Source of the DNA: a bacterium
Lineage (GTDB): Bacteria > Bdellovibrionota_G > JALEGL01
DNA: 64,000 nucleotides
Direction of reading: 5' to 3'
Assembly: GCA_022763185.1 (NCBI GenBank)
Contig: JALEGL010000004.1
Location: 1-64,000, forward strand
Shown here: positions 36,612 through 60,722 of the stretch, one piece after another
Layout: each line of letters begins with the position of its first letter
Position numbering within the stretch: position 1 is the stretch's first letter
Notes under the pieces: model-generated
The model's database searches: none
What the model was told of the DNA's origin: nothing
What the model saw: the letters and a program-made list of their open reading frames with translations, nothing else
Program-made: the position numbers and the translations under genes

Positions 36612-37897
36612 TCCCTCCTTTAGATAAAATCAAGCGATTAAAAAATGGAATGCTGTTTTATAAGGCTTTCTTCGCAAAGGGGAAAGCCAATAAAAACCAC
36701 GTTTTTTATTGGTTTGGGGAAAAGCGTTTTTCCCCTAAAAAAACCAGAGGTTCGGTGGCTTTGACCATGGTTCTGATGATCATTGCAATCATCACCACCT
36801 TGGCCATTGAAATATCTTATCGTTCACAAGTCAGCGCCAGCTTGGTTGTCAATAAGCGTGATTATATTAAAGCTTATGAGCTAGCAAAAGCAGGGTTTAG
36901 ATGGTCTCTTATGCGCTTAAGTTTAGATACGGCTTTGGACCAAATCCCTGCCATACCAGGAACCAACTTTGGTGGTAAAAAAGATGACCTGAGTGAAATG
37001 CAATGGGCAATGCCTTTACCTTACCCCTTGCCTATTGGAAGCAGTTTGTTGGAAAAAAGCCCTGAACAACTCAGTCAAGAACTAGGTGGAAGTTTTGTTT
37101 CTAACATTTATGATGAAAGCGCAAAAATTAACCTTAACGATGTGGGCTCTGGTGGCCCTGGGACGCAGAAAAGATGGTCCGGGACCTCTGAAGTTTTAGA
37201 AAATTTGCTCTTATCTCACCGTTTCAAACGGTTTAATAAAGATAAAGATCATAGAGAGTTGTTATGGGCTATTGAAGACTGGGTGGACGATGACAGTAAA
37301 GTCAATCATATGTCTGGCGGGATAGAAGATGCCCAATACATGTTGGATAATATTCCCAATTTCCATGTTAAAAATGGACCGTTTTACACTGTCGATGAAG
37401 TTAAATTGCTCAAACCCATGACTCAAGAGTTGTTTGAAGAAATAAAACCCTTTATTACTGTTTATCCTTTTAATGCCAAACTTCCCAAACTCTCTACCCA
37501 GCAAGTAACGCCTTTGGGTAAAATTAATATCAATACCGCCCCTTTAGAACTGATTGCAGCTTTGTTTAATAGACAAGCCTTACCCAACCTCAAAGCCCGT
37601 TTAGAGTGTGCTCAACTGGTTACTCAAGCTAGAGAGCTGCAAGCGTTTAGAAGTATTGGCCAAGGAGACGGTGGCTTTATTGCTTTTCTTAATTCACAAT
37701 GTGGTGGTGCAGAAAGCCAGCAAGAAGGCCAATTCCCTATCATATCCAATATTGTTAAAGGTATTTTAGATATTCGTTCAGATTATTTCAGAATAGAAGC
37801 ACAAGCCTCTGTAGGTAAAATAACCACCACCATTGATGCTGTAGTTTCAAGAAAAGATTCAAAAAAACCACAAATCATGTATTGGAGAGTAAGGTAA
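36608..37897 (+). CDS. gspK: Minor pseudopilin GspK with a repeat-enlarged leader
   Basis: Large minor pseudopilin that caps the pseudopilus. The 429-residue protein is cleaved after KKTRG, before SVALTMVLMIIAIITTLA; it lacks Glu at +5, as is normal for GspK. The alpha-helical insertion and the SAM-like region (KININTAPLELIAALFN) are visible. I start it at TTG 36608, six bases after AGGAGG and overlapping the gspJ stop; an upstream in-frame ATG at 36512 would lie 100 bases inside gspJ. The leader is 48 residues, long for this family, because it contains the double-hairpin repeat at 36671-36735 in frame (FGEKRFSPKK). Confidence 0.92.
   Translation: MIPPLDKIKRLKNGMLFYKAFFAKGKANKNHVFYWFGEKRFSPKKTRGSVALTMVLMIIAIITTLAIEISYRSQVSASLVVNKRDYIKAYELAKAGFRWSLMRLSLDTALDQIPAIPGTNFGGKKDDLSEMQWAMPLPYPLPIGSSLLEKSPEQLSQELGGSFVSNIYDESAKINLNDVGSGGPGTQKRWSGTSEVLENLLLSHRFKRFNKDKDHRELLWAIEDWVDDDSKVNHMSGGIEDAQYMLDNIPNFHVKNGPFYTVDEVKLLKPMTQELFEEIKPFITVYPFNAKLPKLSTQQVTPLGKININTAPLELIAALFNRQALPNLKARLECAQLVTQARELQAFRSIGQGDGGFIAFLNSQCGGAESQQEGQFPIISNIVKGILDIRSDYFRIEAQASVGKITTTIDAVVSRKDSKKPQIMYWRVR
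36671..36735 (+). repeat. Double-hairpin repeat, copy 1, in frame in the gspK leader
   Basis: Hairpin A: CCAATAAAAA (36687-36696) pairs with TTTTTATTGG (36703-36712), loop CCACGT. Hairpin B: GGGGAAAA (36716-36723) pairs with TTTTCCCC (36728-36735), loop GCGT. The flank TTCGCAAAGGGG and both loops recur at 50042-50106 and, inverted, at 60661-60722. The loops of A and B are complementary, allowing a kissing interaction. Compared with the 50-kb copy, stem A has CC/GG in place of AA/TT. Confidence 0.85.
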
Positions 37898-37901
37898 ACG
37901 T

Positions 37902-39581
37902 ATGGCAGAAAAAATTTTAGGCTTGGATATAGGAACATTTTCAATCAAAGCAGCTTTGTTTGAATCTTCTTTTACCCAGAGCGAACTAATCAATGTTTAC
38001 GAAAGTGCCCCTCTGAATATTGGTGAGCATGATAGTCATGAACAGTTGGTTGCAAAACAAGTGGCCGCCATAGGACAACTCATTAAAGATAATGAAATTG
38101 ATTTTAAAACCGTTATCAGCTCTATTCCATCAACCCAAGTCAGCTTTAAACCCATGGTTCTTCCTTTAAGCAAAACTCAAATTGAAAAAATTCTACCTTT
38201 TGAAATGGAAAATTTTTTACCGTTTCCCATTGATGAAATGACCTTTGATCATGATTTAATCAAGTTTGAAAAACCCAACTCACATATACTGGCCACTGCA
38301 GTAAAAAATCAATACATTCAAGAACATTTGGATTTACTGCAACAAGCCAATATAGATCCAGCCATTGTGACAACAGATGCCTGTGATTTAAACAATGCGC
38401 TTATGTTTAATCCTGAGCAAAATTTACCAGAGCATTATGGAATTTTACATTTAGGACATCGCTTTAGTTATTTGGTATTCATTTATAACGGAAAAGTTCA
38501 GCATATACGCAGTCAGTTTTTTGGTGGAGCCCATTTAACAGAAGCTATTCGTAAAAATCTTGATCTTACTTTGGAACAAGCTGTTGAAGTTAAACACTCT
38601 CACGGTGTGCTTGAGTTACCTTCAAACCCTTTAAGAAGTGAGGATTTAAAAAAACTATCTGAAACCTTACACACTGCCTTTAGTAACCCTCTTAATCAAA
38701 TTAAACAAAACATTGGTCTTTACCGGGCATCAACAGAATTTGAACAAGCCCTAGAAAAAATTTATCTTACTGGTGGCACGAGCCAATTAAAAAACCTTCC
38801 TGCATGGTTTTCTAATCAGTTGAACTTACCCTGTGAACCTTTGGGCGCTATCCCCCAAGACCATGCATTTAAAAATCAACTGCAAGATAAAGAAGCAAGT
38901 TTAAACTTATCGATTGGCCTGGGTCTAAGAGCGGCAGGTAAAGGTAAGCAGTTACAAAAAATGTCTCACATTGATTTAAGAAAAGGAGACTTCGCTTTTG
39001 CCAAAGATTTATCGGATATCAATAAAATAGCACTATTTTTTGGGCAATGGATTACTGTTATTTTCGTGGTTGCTTTGCTGTTTCAGTCTGTACGTTTTGT
39101 TCAACTGCGAACACAATACGCTCAATCAGAAAAAGTTGTTCTCAAAAAATTCTCGAGTATTTTACCCAAAGTAAAACGTAAACCCAATAACTCTCAGACT
39201 GCACTAAGAACCTTAAAAAAAGAAGTTAAGCGCTATGAGGAAAAACAAAAAATTCTTACTGCTGGTTTAGGAGAAGAAACAGCTTTAAGTGTTTTAAAAA
39301 CCATATCAGATGTTATCTCTCCTGATATTAGTATTGACGTCAAAGAACTCTCCATCGATAACAATAAAGTCACTCTCAATGCCTTAACAACCAGCTTTGA
39401 GAATGTGGATAAAATTGTTAGCAGTCTTAAAGAGCATAAAACATTTAGCACTATTGATCTTGGCGACAGAAAAGAAGACAGTGCGGGTAAGGTCAACTTC
39501 ACATTAACCATAACCATTGAAAGTGAAGAAGAAAAAGCAGATTCGGAACGCAAGAAATCTAACCGAAGGAGACGCAGATGA
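37902..39581 (+). CDS. gspL: Type II secretion protein GspL (actin-like cytoplasmic domain)
   Basis: Inner-membrane protein that recruits the GspE ATPase. The 559 residues have an actin/PilM-like cytoplasmic half (GLDIGTFSIKAALFE at the start; TGGTSQLKNLP near 290), one transmembrane helix (about 378-398), and a periplasmic coiled-coil plus ferredoxin-like domain. It ends in a very basic tail (KKSNRRRRR), which is unusual. It lies four bases after gspK and overlaps gspM by four bases. Confidence 0.92.
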   Translation: MAEKILGLDIGTFSIKAALFESSFTQSELINVYESAPLNIGEHDSHEQLVAKQVAAIGQLIKDNEIDFKTVISSIPSTQVSFKPMVLPLSKTQIEKILPFEMENFLPFPIDEMTFDHDLIKFEKPNSHILATAVKNQYIQEHLDLLQQANIDPAIVTTDACDLNNALMFNPEQNLPEHYGILHLGHRFSYLVFIYNGKVQHIRSQFFGGAHLTEAIRKNLDLTLEQAVEVKHSHGVLELPSNPLRSEDLKKLSETLHTAFSNPLNQIKQNIGLYRASTEFEQALEKIYLTGGTSQLKNLPAWFSNQLNLPCEPLGAIPQDHAFKNQLQDKEASLNLSIGLGLRAAGKGKQLQKMSHIDLRKGDFAFAKDLSDINKIALFFGQWITVIFVVALLFQSVRFVQLRTQYAQSEKVVLKKFSSILPKVKRKPNNSQTALRTLKKEVKRYEEKQKILTAGLGEETALSVLKTISDVISPDISIDVKELSIDNNKVTLNALTTSFENVDKIVSSLKEHKTFSTIDLGDRKEDSAGKVNFTLTITIESEEEKADSERKKSNRRRRR

Positions 39582-40174
39582 GTAAGCTTAACTTTTCTAA
39601 AGAATCTTTTTCTCAAATTATTGAACAAATAGAAACTTTAAAATCTTACTATCATCGCCTTTCCGATCGTGAACGTTATATTGTTCTTGGCTCGGCTATG
39701 GTAGGTTACATTTTATTTTTATTTTTGTTTTACATGCTGGTTGCCAGCACTGTGTCATCTGTTCAAAGTAAAATTGATCTCAACAAAAAAAACTTGGTAC
39801 AAATAGAAGAACTTAGAACCCGCTTACAGAGTTCCAAAACTGCTGTTGATGATATTGAGCAAAGAATCAGAAGAACTGAAGTTGGTTTTCAATTGGCCAC
39901 TGAACTTGAACGCATAGCTGGAAAGTATGGCGTTAATATTGATACTCTCAGTGATCGTCCTGGACAACCCAATGACTTGTACAATGAAATTCAATCTACC
40001 ATTAAAGTTAGCAGCATTGATTTAAAAACATTGATCCATTTTTTATACGATATTGAACATGGCAATAAATTGATCCGTATCTCTTCTTTACAAATCAAAC
40101 CCAACTTTAAGGAACCTTCGCAACTTAATGTAAGCTTTGTGGTATCAACCTTTAAACTTAAGGCTTCATCATGA
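39578..40174 (+). CDS. gspM: Type II secretion protein GspM
   Basis: Bitopic inner-membrane partner of GspL. The 198-residue protein has a short cytoplasmic segment, a transmembrane helix at about 43-65 (GSAMVGYILFLFLFYMLVAS), a coiled coil and a small ferredoxin-like periplasmic domain. Sequence conservation in this family is low, and the call rests on position between gspL and gspN plus this architecture. It overlaps both neighbours by four bases. Confidence 0.85.
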   Translation: MSKLNFSKESFSQIIEQIETLKSYYHRLSDRERYIVLGSAMVGYILFLFLFYMLVASTVSSVQSKIDLNKKNLVQIEELRTRLQSSKTAVDDIEQRIRRTEVGFQLATELERIAGKYGVNIDTLSDRPGQPNDLYNEIQSTIKVSSIDLKTLIHFLYDIEHGNKLIRISSLQIKPNFKEPSQLNVSFVVSTFKLKASS

Positions 40175-60555: not shown

Positions 60556-60595
60556 TCCTGTGGATAACTTTAAAATCAACTTCCTGCACTTTAAA

Positions 60596-60632
60596 TTTAA
60601 TCTTTTGCCCATATCATATTGTGCATGTCTTT
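60596..60632. repeat. Direct repeat: copy of the serine hydrolase gene 3' end
   Basis: Identical over 37 bases to 60755-60791, the last eleven codons and stop of the serine hydrolase gene on the minus strand. The spacing is 159 bases. The double-hairpin repeat lies between the two copies. Confidence 0.9.
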
Positions 60633-60660
60633 CCACCCGCTTCGCTCTTCTGTTTATTAA

Positions 60661-60722
60661 AGGGAAAAACGCTTTTCCCTCGAAAATAAAAACCGTTGTT
60701 TTTATTTTCTCACCCTTTGCGA
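60661..60722 (-). repeat. Double-hairpin repeat, copy 4 (inverted)
   Basis: Read on the minus strand: CGCAAAGGGTGA, hairpin A with a 12-bp stem (GAAAATAAAAAC and complement, 60682-60693 with 60698-60709, loop AACG), then hairpin B AGGGAAAA with TTTTCCCT (60661-60680), loop GCGT. Order, flank and loops match copies 1 and 2. Here the A loop can pair with the B loop over three bases (ACG with CGT). It sits inside the murein-recycling operon. Confidence 0.85.

What the first reader, a model, noticed from the sequence alone, without database searches (positions are those of the whole stretch)
36671..60722. Dispersed double-hairpin element with complementary (kissing) loops
Four places (36671-36735, 50042-50106, 51870-51925, and 60661-60722 inverted) carry the same order: CGCAAAGGG-like flank (first, second and fourth), hairpin A, hairpin B. 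The A loop contains ACGC, ACGT, CGC or AACG; the B loop is GCGT throughout. The loops are complementary in every copy. Stems differ strongly between copies but stay paired (AAAAT/ATTTT, CCAAT/ATTGG, TTGACAAAGAC/GTCTTTGTCAA). Keeping structure and loop pairing while the stem sequence changes suggests selection for an RNA or single-strand DNA structure, not just random repeats. I know of no described family with this form.
Basis: partly seen in the sequence, partly recalled or inferred. Interest (0 to 1): 0.85.

Follow-up and report, generated by a model that had tools for sequence, protein, structure and literature searches.

The report
Mobile double-hairpin repeat family
A roughly 60-base sequence that folds into two neighbouring hairpins is scattered about forty times through this bacterial genome, and related copies turn up in other bacteria; it looks like a tiny inserted element that is kept as an RNA structure, and how it copies itself is not known.

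Summary
The four double hairpins are real. A covariance model from 18 copies finds 40 in this 2.25-Mb genome, 8 in a genome of another family of the order, none in three others of the phylum, and 7 in 4 of 183 genomes of the order of a Polyangiaceae MAG. No Rfam family fits. On an alignment not fitted to a model, 32 copies from three lineages show strong compensatory change in both stems. The kissing-loop idea fails: complementarity of 3 or more bases in 9 of 26 own copies and 0 of 7 in the second genome, no better than shuffled partners. Direct repeats of score 18 or more lie around 12 of 52 copies, against 1 of 209 control sites, so the unit looks inserted. The mover is unknown: no RVT_1 match, no terminal inverted repeats, and no IS200-type gene directly beside a copy, though the genome's three lie 1.2-2.4 kb from one. 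Copies lie mostly sense to genes, 27 against 7; mispairs favour G-U over A-C. Best reading: a mobile palindromic element kept as mRNA hairpins.

The parts
36673..36736 (+). Copy 1: flank CGCAAAGGG 36673-36681, hairpin A 36684-36715, hairpin B 36716-36735. Lies inside the reading frame 36512-37897 of a GspK-like gene, upstream of its pseudopilin segment.
   Evidence: R1 60.7 bits; gene named
50042..50107 (+). Copy 2: flank 50042-50050, hairpin A 50053-50086, hairpin B 50087-50106; opposite strand to tRNA-Cys (50284-50358, - strand)
   Evidence: R1 53.6 bits
51856..51917 (+). Copy 3: hairpin A 51870-51894, hairpin B 51896-51917; module C (51777-51870) lies before it in place of the CGCAAAGGG flank; near tRNA-Gly (52104-52178, - strand)
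   Evidence: R1 54.1 bits
60660..60722 (-). Copy 4: flank 60713-60721, hairpin A 60682-60709, hairpin B 60661-60680, between two reading frames of the same strand
   Evidence: (R1 68.8 bits)
60755..60791 (-). Direct repeat, upstream copy: 3' end of the beta-lactamase-like gene (60756-61796) with its stop codon, 37 nt
60596..60632 (-). Direct repeat, second copy of the same 37 nt on the other side of copy 4
51597..51657 (+). Fifth, degenerate copy
   Evidence: 23.4 bits, E 6.5e-5, filters off, window only; 20.6 bits, E 0.014, whole genome

Best explanation
A family of short (core about 60 nt) non-autonomous mobile elements made of two adjacent hairpins. Shown: many dispersed copies, kept pairing with changing stem sequence, a recurring 5' flank (CGCAAAGGG(G)TGA type), and long direct repeats around about a fifth of the copies. 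Inferred: new copies enter by an insertion that duplicates a stretch of target of variable length (21 to 94 nt among the stronger cases). A duplication that spans a gene's stop or start leaves that gene whole, which would explain why such insertions survive. Inferred from orientation and G-U pairs: copies that persist are mostly read in the A-to-B direction as part of mRNA, where the two hairpins may act as a roadblock or shield near a gene's 3' end or in its leader. The enzyme that moves them is not known.
For: Copies: 40 matches in the own genome at E<=0.01, of which 18 trained the model, 8 in G003, 0 in G001, G002 and G004 (G002 is 74% complete); 7 in 4 of 183 genomes of the order of the Polyangiaceae MAG at E<=1e-4; an exact pattern in 3 contigs of MAG HKST-UBA01 and 1 contig of that Polyangiaceae MAG. 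Pairing: on the unfitted alignment of 32 copies 95.4% of cells pair and 162 cells are changed on both sides, against 46.9 in shuffles and at most 62 in slid controls (the structure was chosen on the same alignment, which favours it over slid versions); on the model-fitted alignment of 54, 96.9% and 171 against 48.3. Insertion: 12 of 52 copies have a repeat of score 18 or more between their flanks, control 1 of 209; perfect repeats of 69 nt (L131, L161), 75 nt (L135) and 37 nt (copy 4); the smallest inserts, L161 and L135, are 74 nt, hardly more than the double hairpin. Sense strand: among 40 copies with two flanking frames 27 are sense to both and 7 antisense (p 8e-4); interior mispairs on the A-to-B strand are G-T 19 and A-C 2 with both scored alike.
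Against: Forty of 52 copies have no repeat of that score (one, L147, starts at a contig end and could not be tested); in one of the 12 (L144) the repeats lie 168 and 79 nt from the copy. L135, L138 and L141 look like tandem duplication of repeat plus element rather than simple insertion, and the two G003 cases L161 and L162 end 1 and 9 nt from a contig end. Insert ends share no terminal inverted repeat; 4 of 12 share the right-hand sequence GAGCGAAGCGGG. No empty site was compared: none of the genomes held shares genus or family. Five of the 19 G-T pairs are one shared position in related copies, and orientation counts include three close pairs of copies. All three Y1 genes of the genome lie within 2.4 kb of a copy, which speaks for rival 1. 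Lowest-energy folds of copy 1 and L190 do not show hairpin A. One of five covariation measures is no better than shuffles (175 of 500). No transcript data.
Confidence: 0.55

Rival explanations
1. The hairpins matter as single-stranded DNA: they are recognised by a tyrosine (HUH, IS200/RAYT-type) or other transposase, as in REP/REPIN elements; the orientation bias is only selection against harm. This overlaps with the best reading, since both take the unit as mobile.
For: Y1_Tnp genes occur in 5 of 5 genomes of the phylum, 3 in the own genome, and those three lie 1.2, 2.2 and 2.4 kb from a copy; at most 8.7% of the genome is that close to one, so three of three is unlikely by chance (about 0.0007), though the distance was chosen after the fact. 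The nearest one is a copy cut by the start of contig C5 with the same letters as the copy at the end of C13. Paired hairpins are how REP dimers look (PMC3733652, section read).
Against: Loci around the 13 Y1 genes (up to 1.5 kb each side) hold no copy except that truncated one; the window's Y1 gene is framed by a different inverted repeat; in G003 the four Y1 genes and the eight copies are on different contigs (short contigs, so weak); G-T rather than A-C mispairs favour RNA; long direct repeats are not known to me for HUH elements (recalled).
Confidence: 0.3
2. No transposition: hairpins stall replication, and slippage or template switching both duplicates neighbouring DNA and repairs imperfect palindromes, which mimics covariation.
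For: L135, L138 and L141 show repeat plus element twice, the second time altered or cut short; hairpin-driven slippage and palindrome correction are established (recalled).
Against: Like flanks, loops and order at unrelated sites and in other lineages need some spread; in the other cases printed no second hairpin of this family is seen in the 40 nt after the second repeat (only 1 and 9 nt are left there in L161 and L162).
Confidence: 0.15
3. A cis-regulatory leader RNA kept with particular genes.
For: Three copies lie 14-18 nt before the start of a sense reading frame, one of them serine hydroxymethyltransferase.
Against: The neighbouring genes named are unrelated; 13 of 29 copies with a sense gene upstream lie within 70 nt of its stop; copy number and direct repeats look like spread.
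Confidence: 0.07
4. Kissing-loop RNA as first proposed: the A and B loops pair.
For: Complementarity of 3-4 bases in the four window copies and of 3 in 7 of 7 copies from the Polyangiaceae order (those seven were entered by hand with wider loops, which favours complementarity).
Against: 9 of 26 own copies, 0 of 7 in G003, no excess over shuffled partners; the B loop is AGA, GTGA, GCGA or GCAA in many copies.
Confidence: 0.03

Closest known systems
REP / BIME / REPIN palindromic repeats (GTAG and CGTC families, RAYT-associated)
   Same: Short dispersed hairpins, often as dimers, mostly between unidirectional or convergent genes and near a 3' end, some inside genes; stems vary within families (PMC3733652: abstract and sections 6, 14, 15 read).
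   Different: No GTAG or CGTC tag seen at the hairpin feet; two unlike hairpins in fixed order; no Y1 gene directly beside a copy; long direct repeats.
Double-hairpin elements of fungal mitochondria (Allomyces, Schizosaccharomyces)
   Same: Two hairpins as a potentially mobile unit, mostly intergenic, some in rRNA genes (PMC10085805 passages; PMC7218506 passages; the original Paquin 2000 paper was not read).
   Different: Mitochondrial and GC-rich; the likeness is of form only, no sequence comparison was made.
Rickettsia palindromic elements (RPE)
   Same: Palindromic inserts that can sit in frame in genes, as copy 1 does in the GspK-like frame (PMC10969869 passages).
   Different: RPEs are about 150 bp and nearly half of them lie in genes; here 8 of 46 copies fell inside a mechanically called frame, some of those frames doubtful.
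IS1549 / IS1634 insertions
   Same: Long target duplications of variable length, 8-514 bp, for which no mechanistic model had been proposed (PMC2266710 passages).
   Different: Those are full insertion sequences of 1.5-2 kb with a transposase and terminal repeats; these inserts have none of that.

Membership tests
REP / BIME (GTAG or CGTC) | GTAG or CGTC unpaired tag at the hairpin foot | tested here: not met
   Read by eye in the list of 52 copies: feet of A are mostly GGGTGA / GGGATGA, of B mostly GAGGG / GAAGGG; tag definition from PMC3733652
REPIN / RAYT system | RAYT (Y1) gene flanked by the repeat | tested here: inconclusive
   13 Y1 genes in 5 genomes, loci scanned with R1: one truncated copy 1.2 kb away; but the three own Y1 genes lie within 2.4 kb of a copy
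MITE | terminal inverted repeats | tested here: not met
   12 repeat-bounded inserts (11 of the 12, without L144, plus the weaker L165): longest exact terminal inverted repeat 1-3 nt
MITE | short target duplication of fixed length (definition recalled) | tested here: not met
   repeats of 21-94 nt at score 18 or more
Element moved by a reverse transcriptase of this genome | RVT_1 domain in the genome | tested here: not met
   no match in the own genome, 97% complete; control found it in 3 of 14 genomes
Described RNA family | Rfam match at a copy | tested here: not met
   window at gathering scores: two tRNAs only; 49900-52300 at E<=3: two tRNAs and five weak matches, one of them (rliB, 16.7 bits against 40, E 2.3) over copy 2; nine loci at E<=1: one weak match away from the copy
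IS1634-type mobilisation | IS1634-family transposase in the genome | not tested
   cap of genome searches reached
Mitochondrial double-hairpin elements | sequence homology | not tested
   no comparison made

The most novel reading that the evidence does not exclude
A bacterial mobile element that is nothing but an RNA double hairpin and spreads by an undescribed reaction that duplicates some 20-90 bp of target, without terminal repeats, reverse transcriptase or adjacent transposase, and is shared by bacteria of distant lineages.
Probability: 0.22. Interest if true: 0.85.

Novelty: new variant of a known kind. Interest (0 to 1): 0.6.

Why it matters
Palindromic repeats are common in bacteria, but how many of them move is open. 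This family offers copies with perfect long direct repeats, a clear structural constraint and hosts in several lineages, so both the insertion reaction and the role of the hairpins as RNA can be tested. The long variable repeats recall the unexplained ones of IS1549 and IS1634.

Tried and rejected
Kissing loops: rejected by further copies. Rho-independent terminator: no terminator-like site at the copies in the two stretches scanned, 49900-52400 and 60400-60900; copy 1 was not scanned. Reverse transcription: no RVT_1 in the own genome. RAYT ends: no copy directly beside a Y1 gene, but nearness within 2.4 kb keeps it open. Rfam: no family. A first hairpin parser gave poor stems and was replaced. 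Literature: eight searches; in what they listed I saw no title or start of abstract that describes this family in bacteria; the rtT search listed nothing on rtT. No claim is made beyond those searches.

The readings overlap and do not add to one.

Rows dropped: of 54 matches, two overlapping opposite-strand matches (L132 2465-2522, L162 63-117) were left out; searches used the 46 of 52 with 25 bits or more, of which 40 have a frame on both sides; one search used 40 copies (32 of the 52 as parsed, L164 re-entered by hand, and seven from the Polyangiaceae order), leaving out 19 with degenerate or interrupted hairpins; one search left out 8 of 52 copies for A and 20 for B. Without dropping, one search gives A: G-T 13, A-C 1; B: G-T 28, A-C 16, the B figures being unreliable because interrupted copies were misparsed. 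Searches show 12 cases that are not quite the 12: L144 (score 21, distant) is left out and L165 (17 nt, score 14) is in.
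Full report
Observation. In copy 1 the lowest-energy fold does not close hairpin A. A fifth degenerate copy is at 51597-51657.

Extent. Pattern and blast searches of the own genome showed more copies and associated modules (read). A covariance model from 18 copies gave 40 matches at E<=0.01 in the own genome, 8 in G003 (same order, other family), and none in G001, G002 (74% complete) and G004. An exact pattern search of named genomes hit three contigs of MAG HKST-UBA01 and one of a Polyangiaceae MAG, and no viral contig. 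That Polyangiaceae genome holds two matches, and 4 of 183 genomes of its order hold 7 in all (stricter filters, and a model trained on AT-rich copies, so probably a lower bound). These copies are in DNA of 58-65% G+C. Four have the B stem GGGGAGGC/GCCTCCCC, two a close variant and one GGGGAAAA/TTTTCCCC; all seven have the loop GCGT. MAGs may hold contaminant contigs; presence in four genomes makes that an unlikely full explanation.

Structure. On the 32-copy alignment made without a model, 17 of 18 pairs have changes on both sides, with 162 such cells against 46.9 in shuffles; the count of further pair types is not above shuffles (175 of 500 reach it). The fitted 54-row alignment agrees. The A loop is mostly C[CG][AG]CG in the own and Polyangiaceae-order copies and unrelated in G003; the B loop is GCGT, GCGA, GTGA, GCAA or AGA, among others. 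Loop complementarity is not kept. Folds of six further copies give z -1.9 to -4.6; that of L190 does not show hairpin A.

DNA or RNA. A G-U pair in one RNA strand corresponds to A-C in the other, so an excess of G-T over A-C on one strand points to RNA from that strand. With both scored alike, interior stems have G-T 19 and A-C 2 on the A-to-B strand; five of the 19 are one shared position. Among 40 copies with two flanking reading frames (called mechanically), 27 are sense to both, 7 antisense, 5 divergent, 1 convergent; 13 of 29 copies with a sense frame upstream begin within 70 nt of its stop. Both point, modestly, to a role in mRNA.

Insertion. Direct repeats between the flanks reach score 18 in 12 of 52 copies and in 1 of 209 control places; at score 13 it is 15 of 52 and 5 of 209. 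Lengths of the 12 run from 21 to 94 nt. Taking the gaps, the repeat holds a gene's 3' end with its stop in five cases (copy 4; L135, RpiB-like; L138, ETF alpha; L141, thioesterase; L161, DUF520), part of the 3' end without the last codons in three more (L133, ATP synthase delta/epsilon; L146, B12-binding; L164, aldehyde dehydrogenase) and in the weaker L165 (LepA C-terminus), and what reads as the first codons of a PilZ gene on the other strand in L131. L161 and L135 have the shortest inserts, 74 nt. In L161 and L162 the second repeat ends 1 and 9 nt from a contig end, so those need care. In L146 the two repeats differ by changes that mostly keep the encoded peptide (my reading). L135, L138 and L141 look like tandem duplication of repeat plus element.

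Mover. No RVT_1 in the own genome and no terminal inverted repeats. No Y1 gene directly beside a copy, yet the three Y1 genes of the genome lie 1.2, 2.2 and 2.4 kb from one, which chance would give about 7 times in 10,000 on an upper-bound estimate made after the fact. Long variable repeats have a precedent in IS1549 and IS1634, for which no model had been given (PMC2266710 passages); whether such an enzyme is in this genome was not tested.

Verdict. A small mobile palindromic element, a new variant of the REP / RPE / double-hairpin kind, with its mover unknown and a probable role or tolerance as mRNA hairpins. The kissing-loop claim does not hold.

Noticed in passing
window 50105-50307 and 51930-52127 (- strand); L055, L056, L058: Downstream of tRNA-Cys, tRNA-Gly, tmRNA, tRNA-Ser(tga) and tRNA-Leu(taa) the last 19-21 nt of that same RNA are repeated (95-100% identical) 145-150 nt after its CCA end, behind a related hairpin module; tmRNA and Ser have a further partial copy at +293 (5 of 11 genes tested, weak or absent in 6). 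Recalls the rtT repeats of the E. coli tyrT operon (from memory). Possibly as interesting as the finding itself.
   Followed up: partly
window 58007-58746: Y1 (IS200-like) transposase gene 58032-58721 framed by an inverted repeat (58007-58039, 58714-58746), with related hairpins at 9986, 11680 and 60523: a RAYT/REP-like set that does not resemble the A-B family.
   Followed up: partly
window 35107-35199 and 51777-51870: Module C, another palindromic repeat (ATTCATAAAGCTGTACTT...), one copy just upstream of a GspI-like gene and one fused to copy 3; further copies on C5, C8, C14 and C15.
   Followed up: partly
L064, L068, L075, L079, L057, L021: A smaller hairpin (module D, GGCTTTGCATAAG...CTAA type) sits inside the B hairpin of several copies; its stems also vary while seeming to stay paired (reading).
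   Followed up: no
window 36650-36780: Copy 1 is read through in frame before the hydrophobic pseudopilin segment of the GspK-like protein; if that is the true start it may be removed on processing.
   Followed up: no
L187, L189, L190, L191: Copies from the Polyangiaceae order are framed on one or both sides by AGCAGGCTGCTGAA-type (or AACAGGCTGATGAA-type) hairpins.
   Followed up: no
G000 C6:1-62, C13:12128-12187, C5:229374-229426, C1:30895-30959, C5:1-32: Four copies lie at or within about 75 nt of contig ends, and a fifth is cut by the start of C5, with the same letters as the one at the end of C13: these two contigs may be neighbours.
   Followed up: partly
L060: The 5' end of tRNA-Ser(gct) seems to be repeated about 110 nt upstream across a small palindrome (reading).
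   Followed up: no
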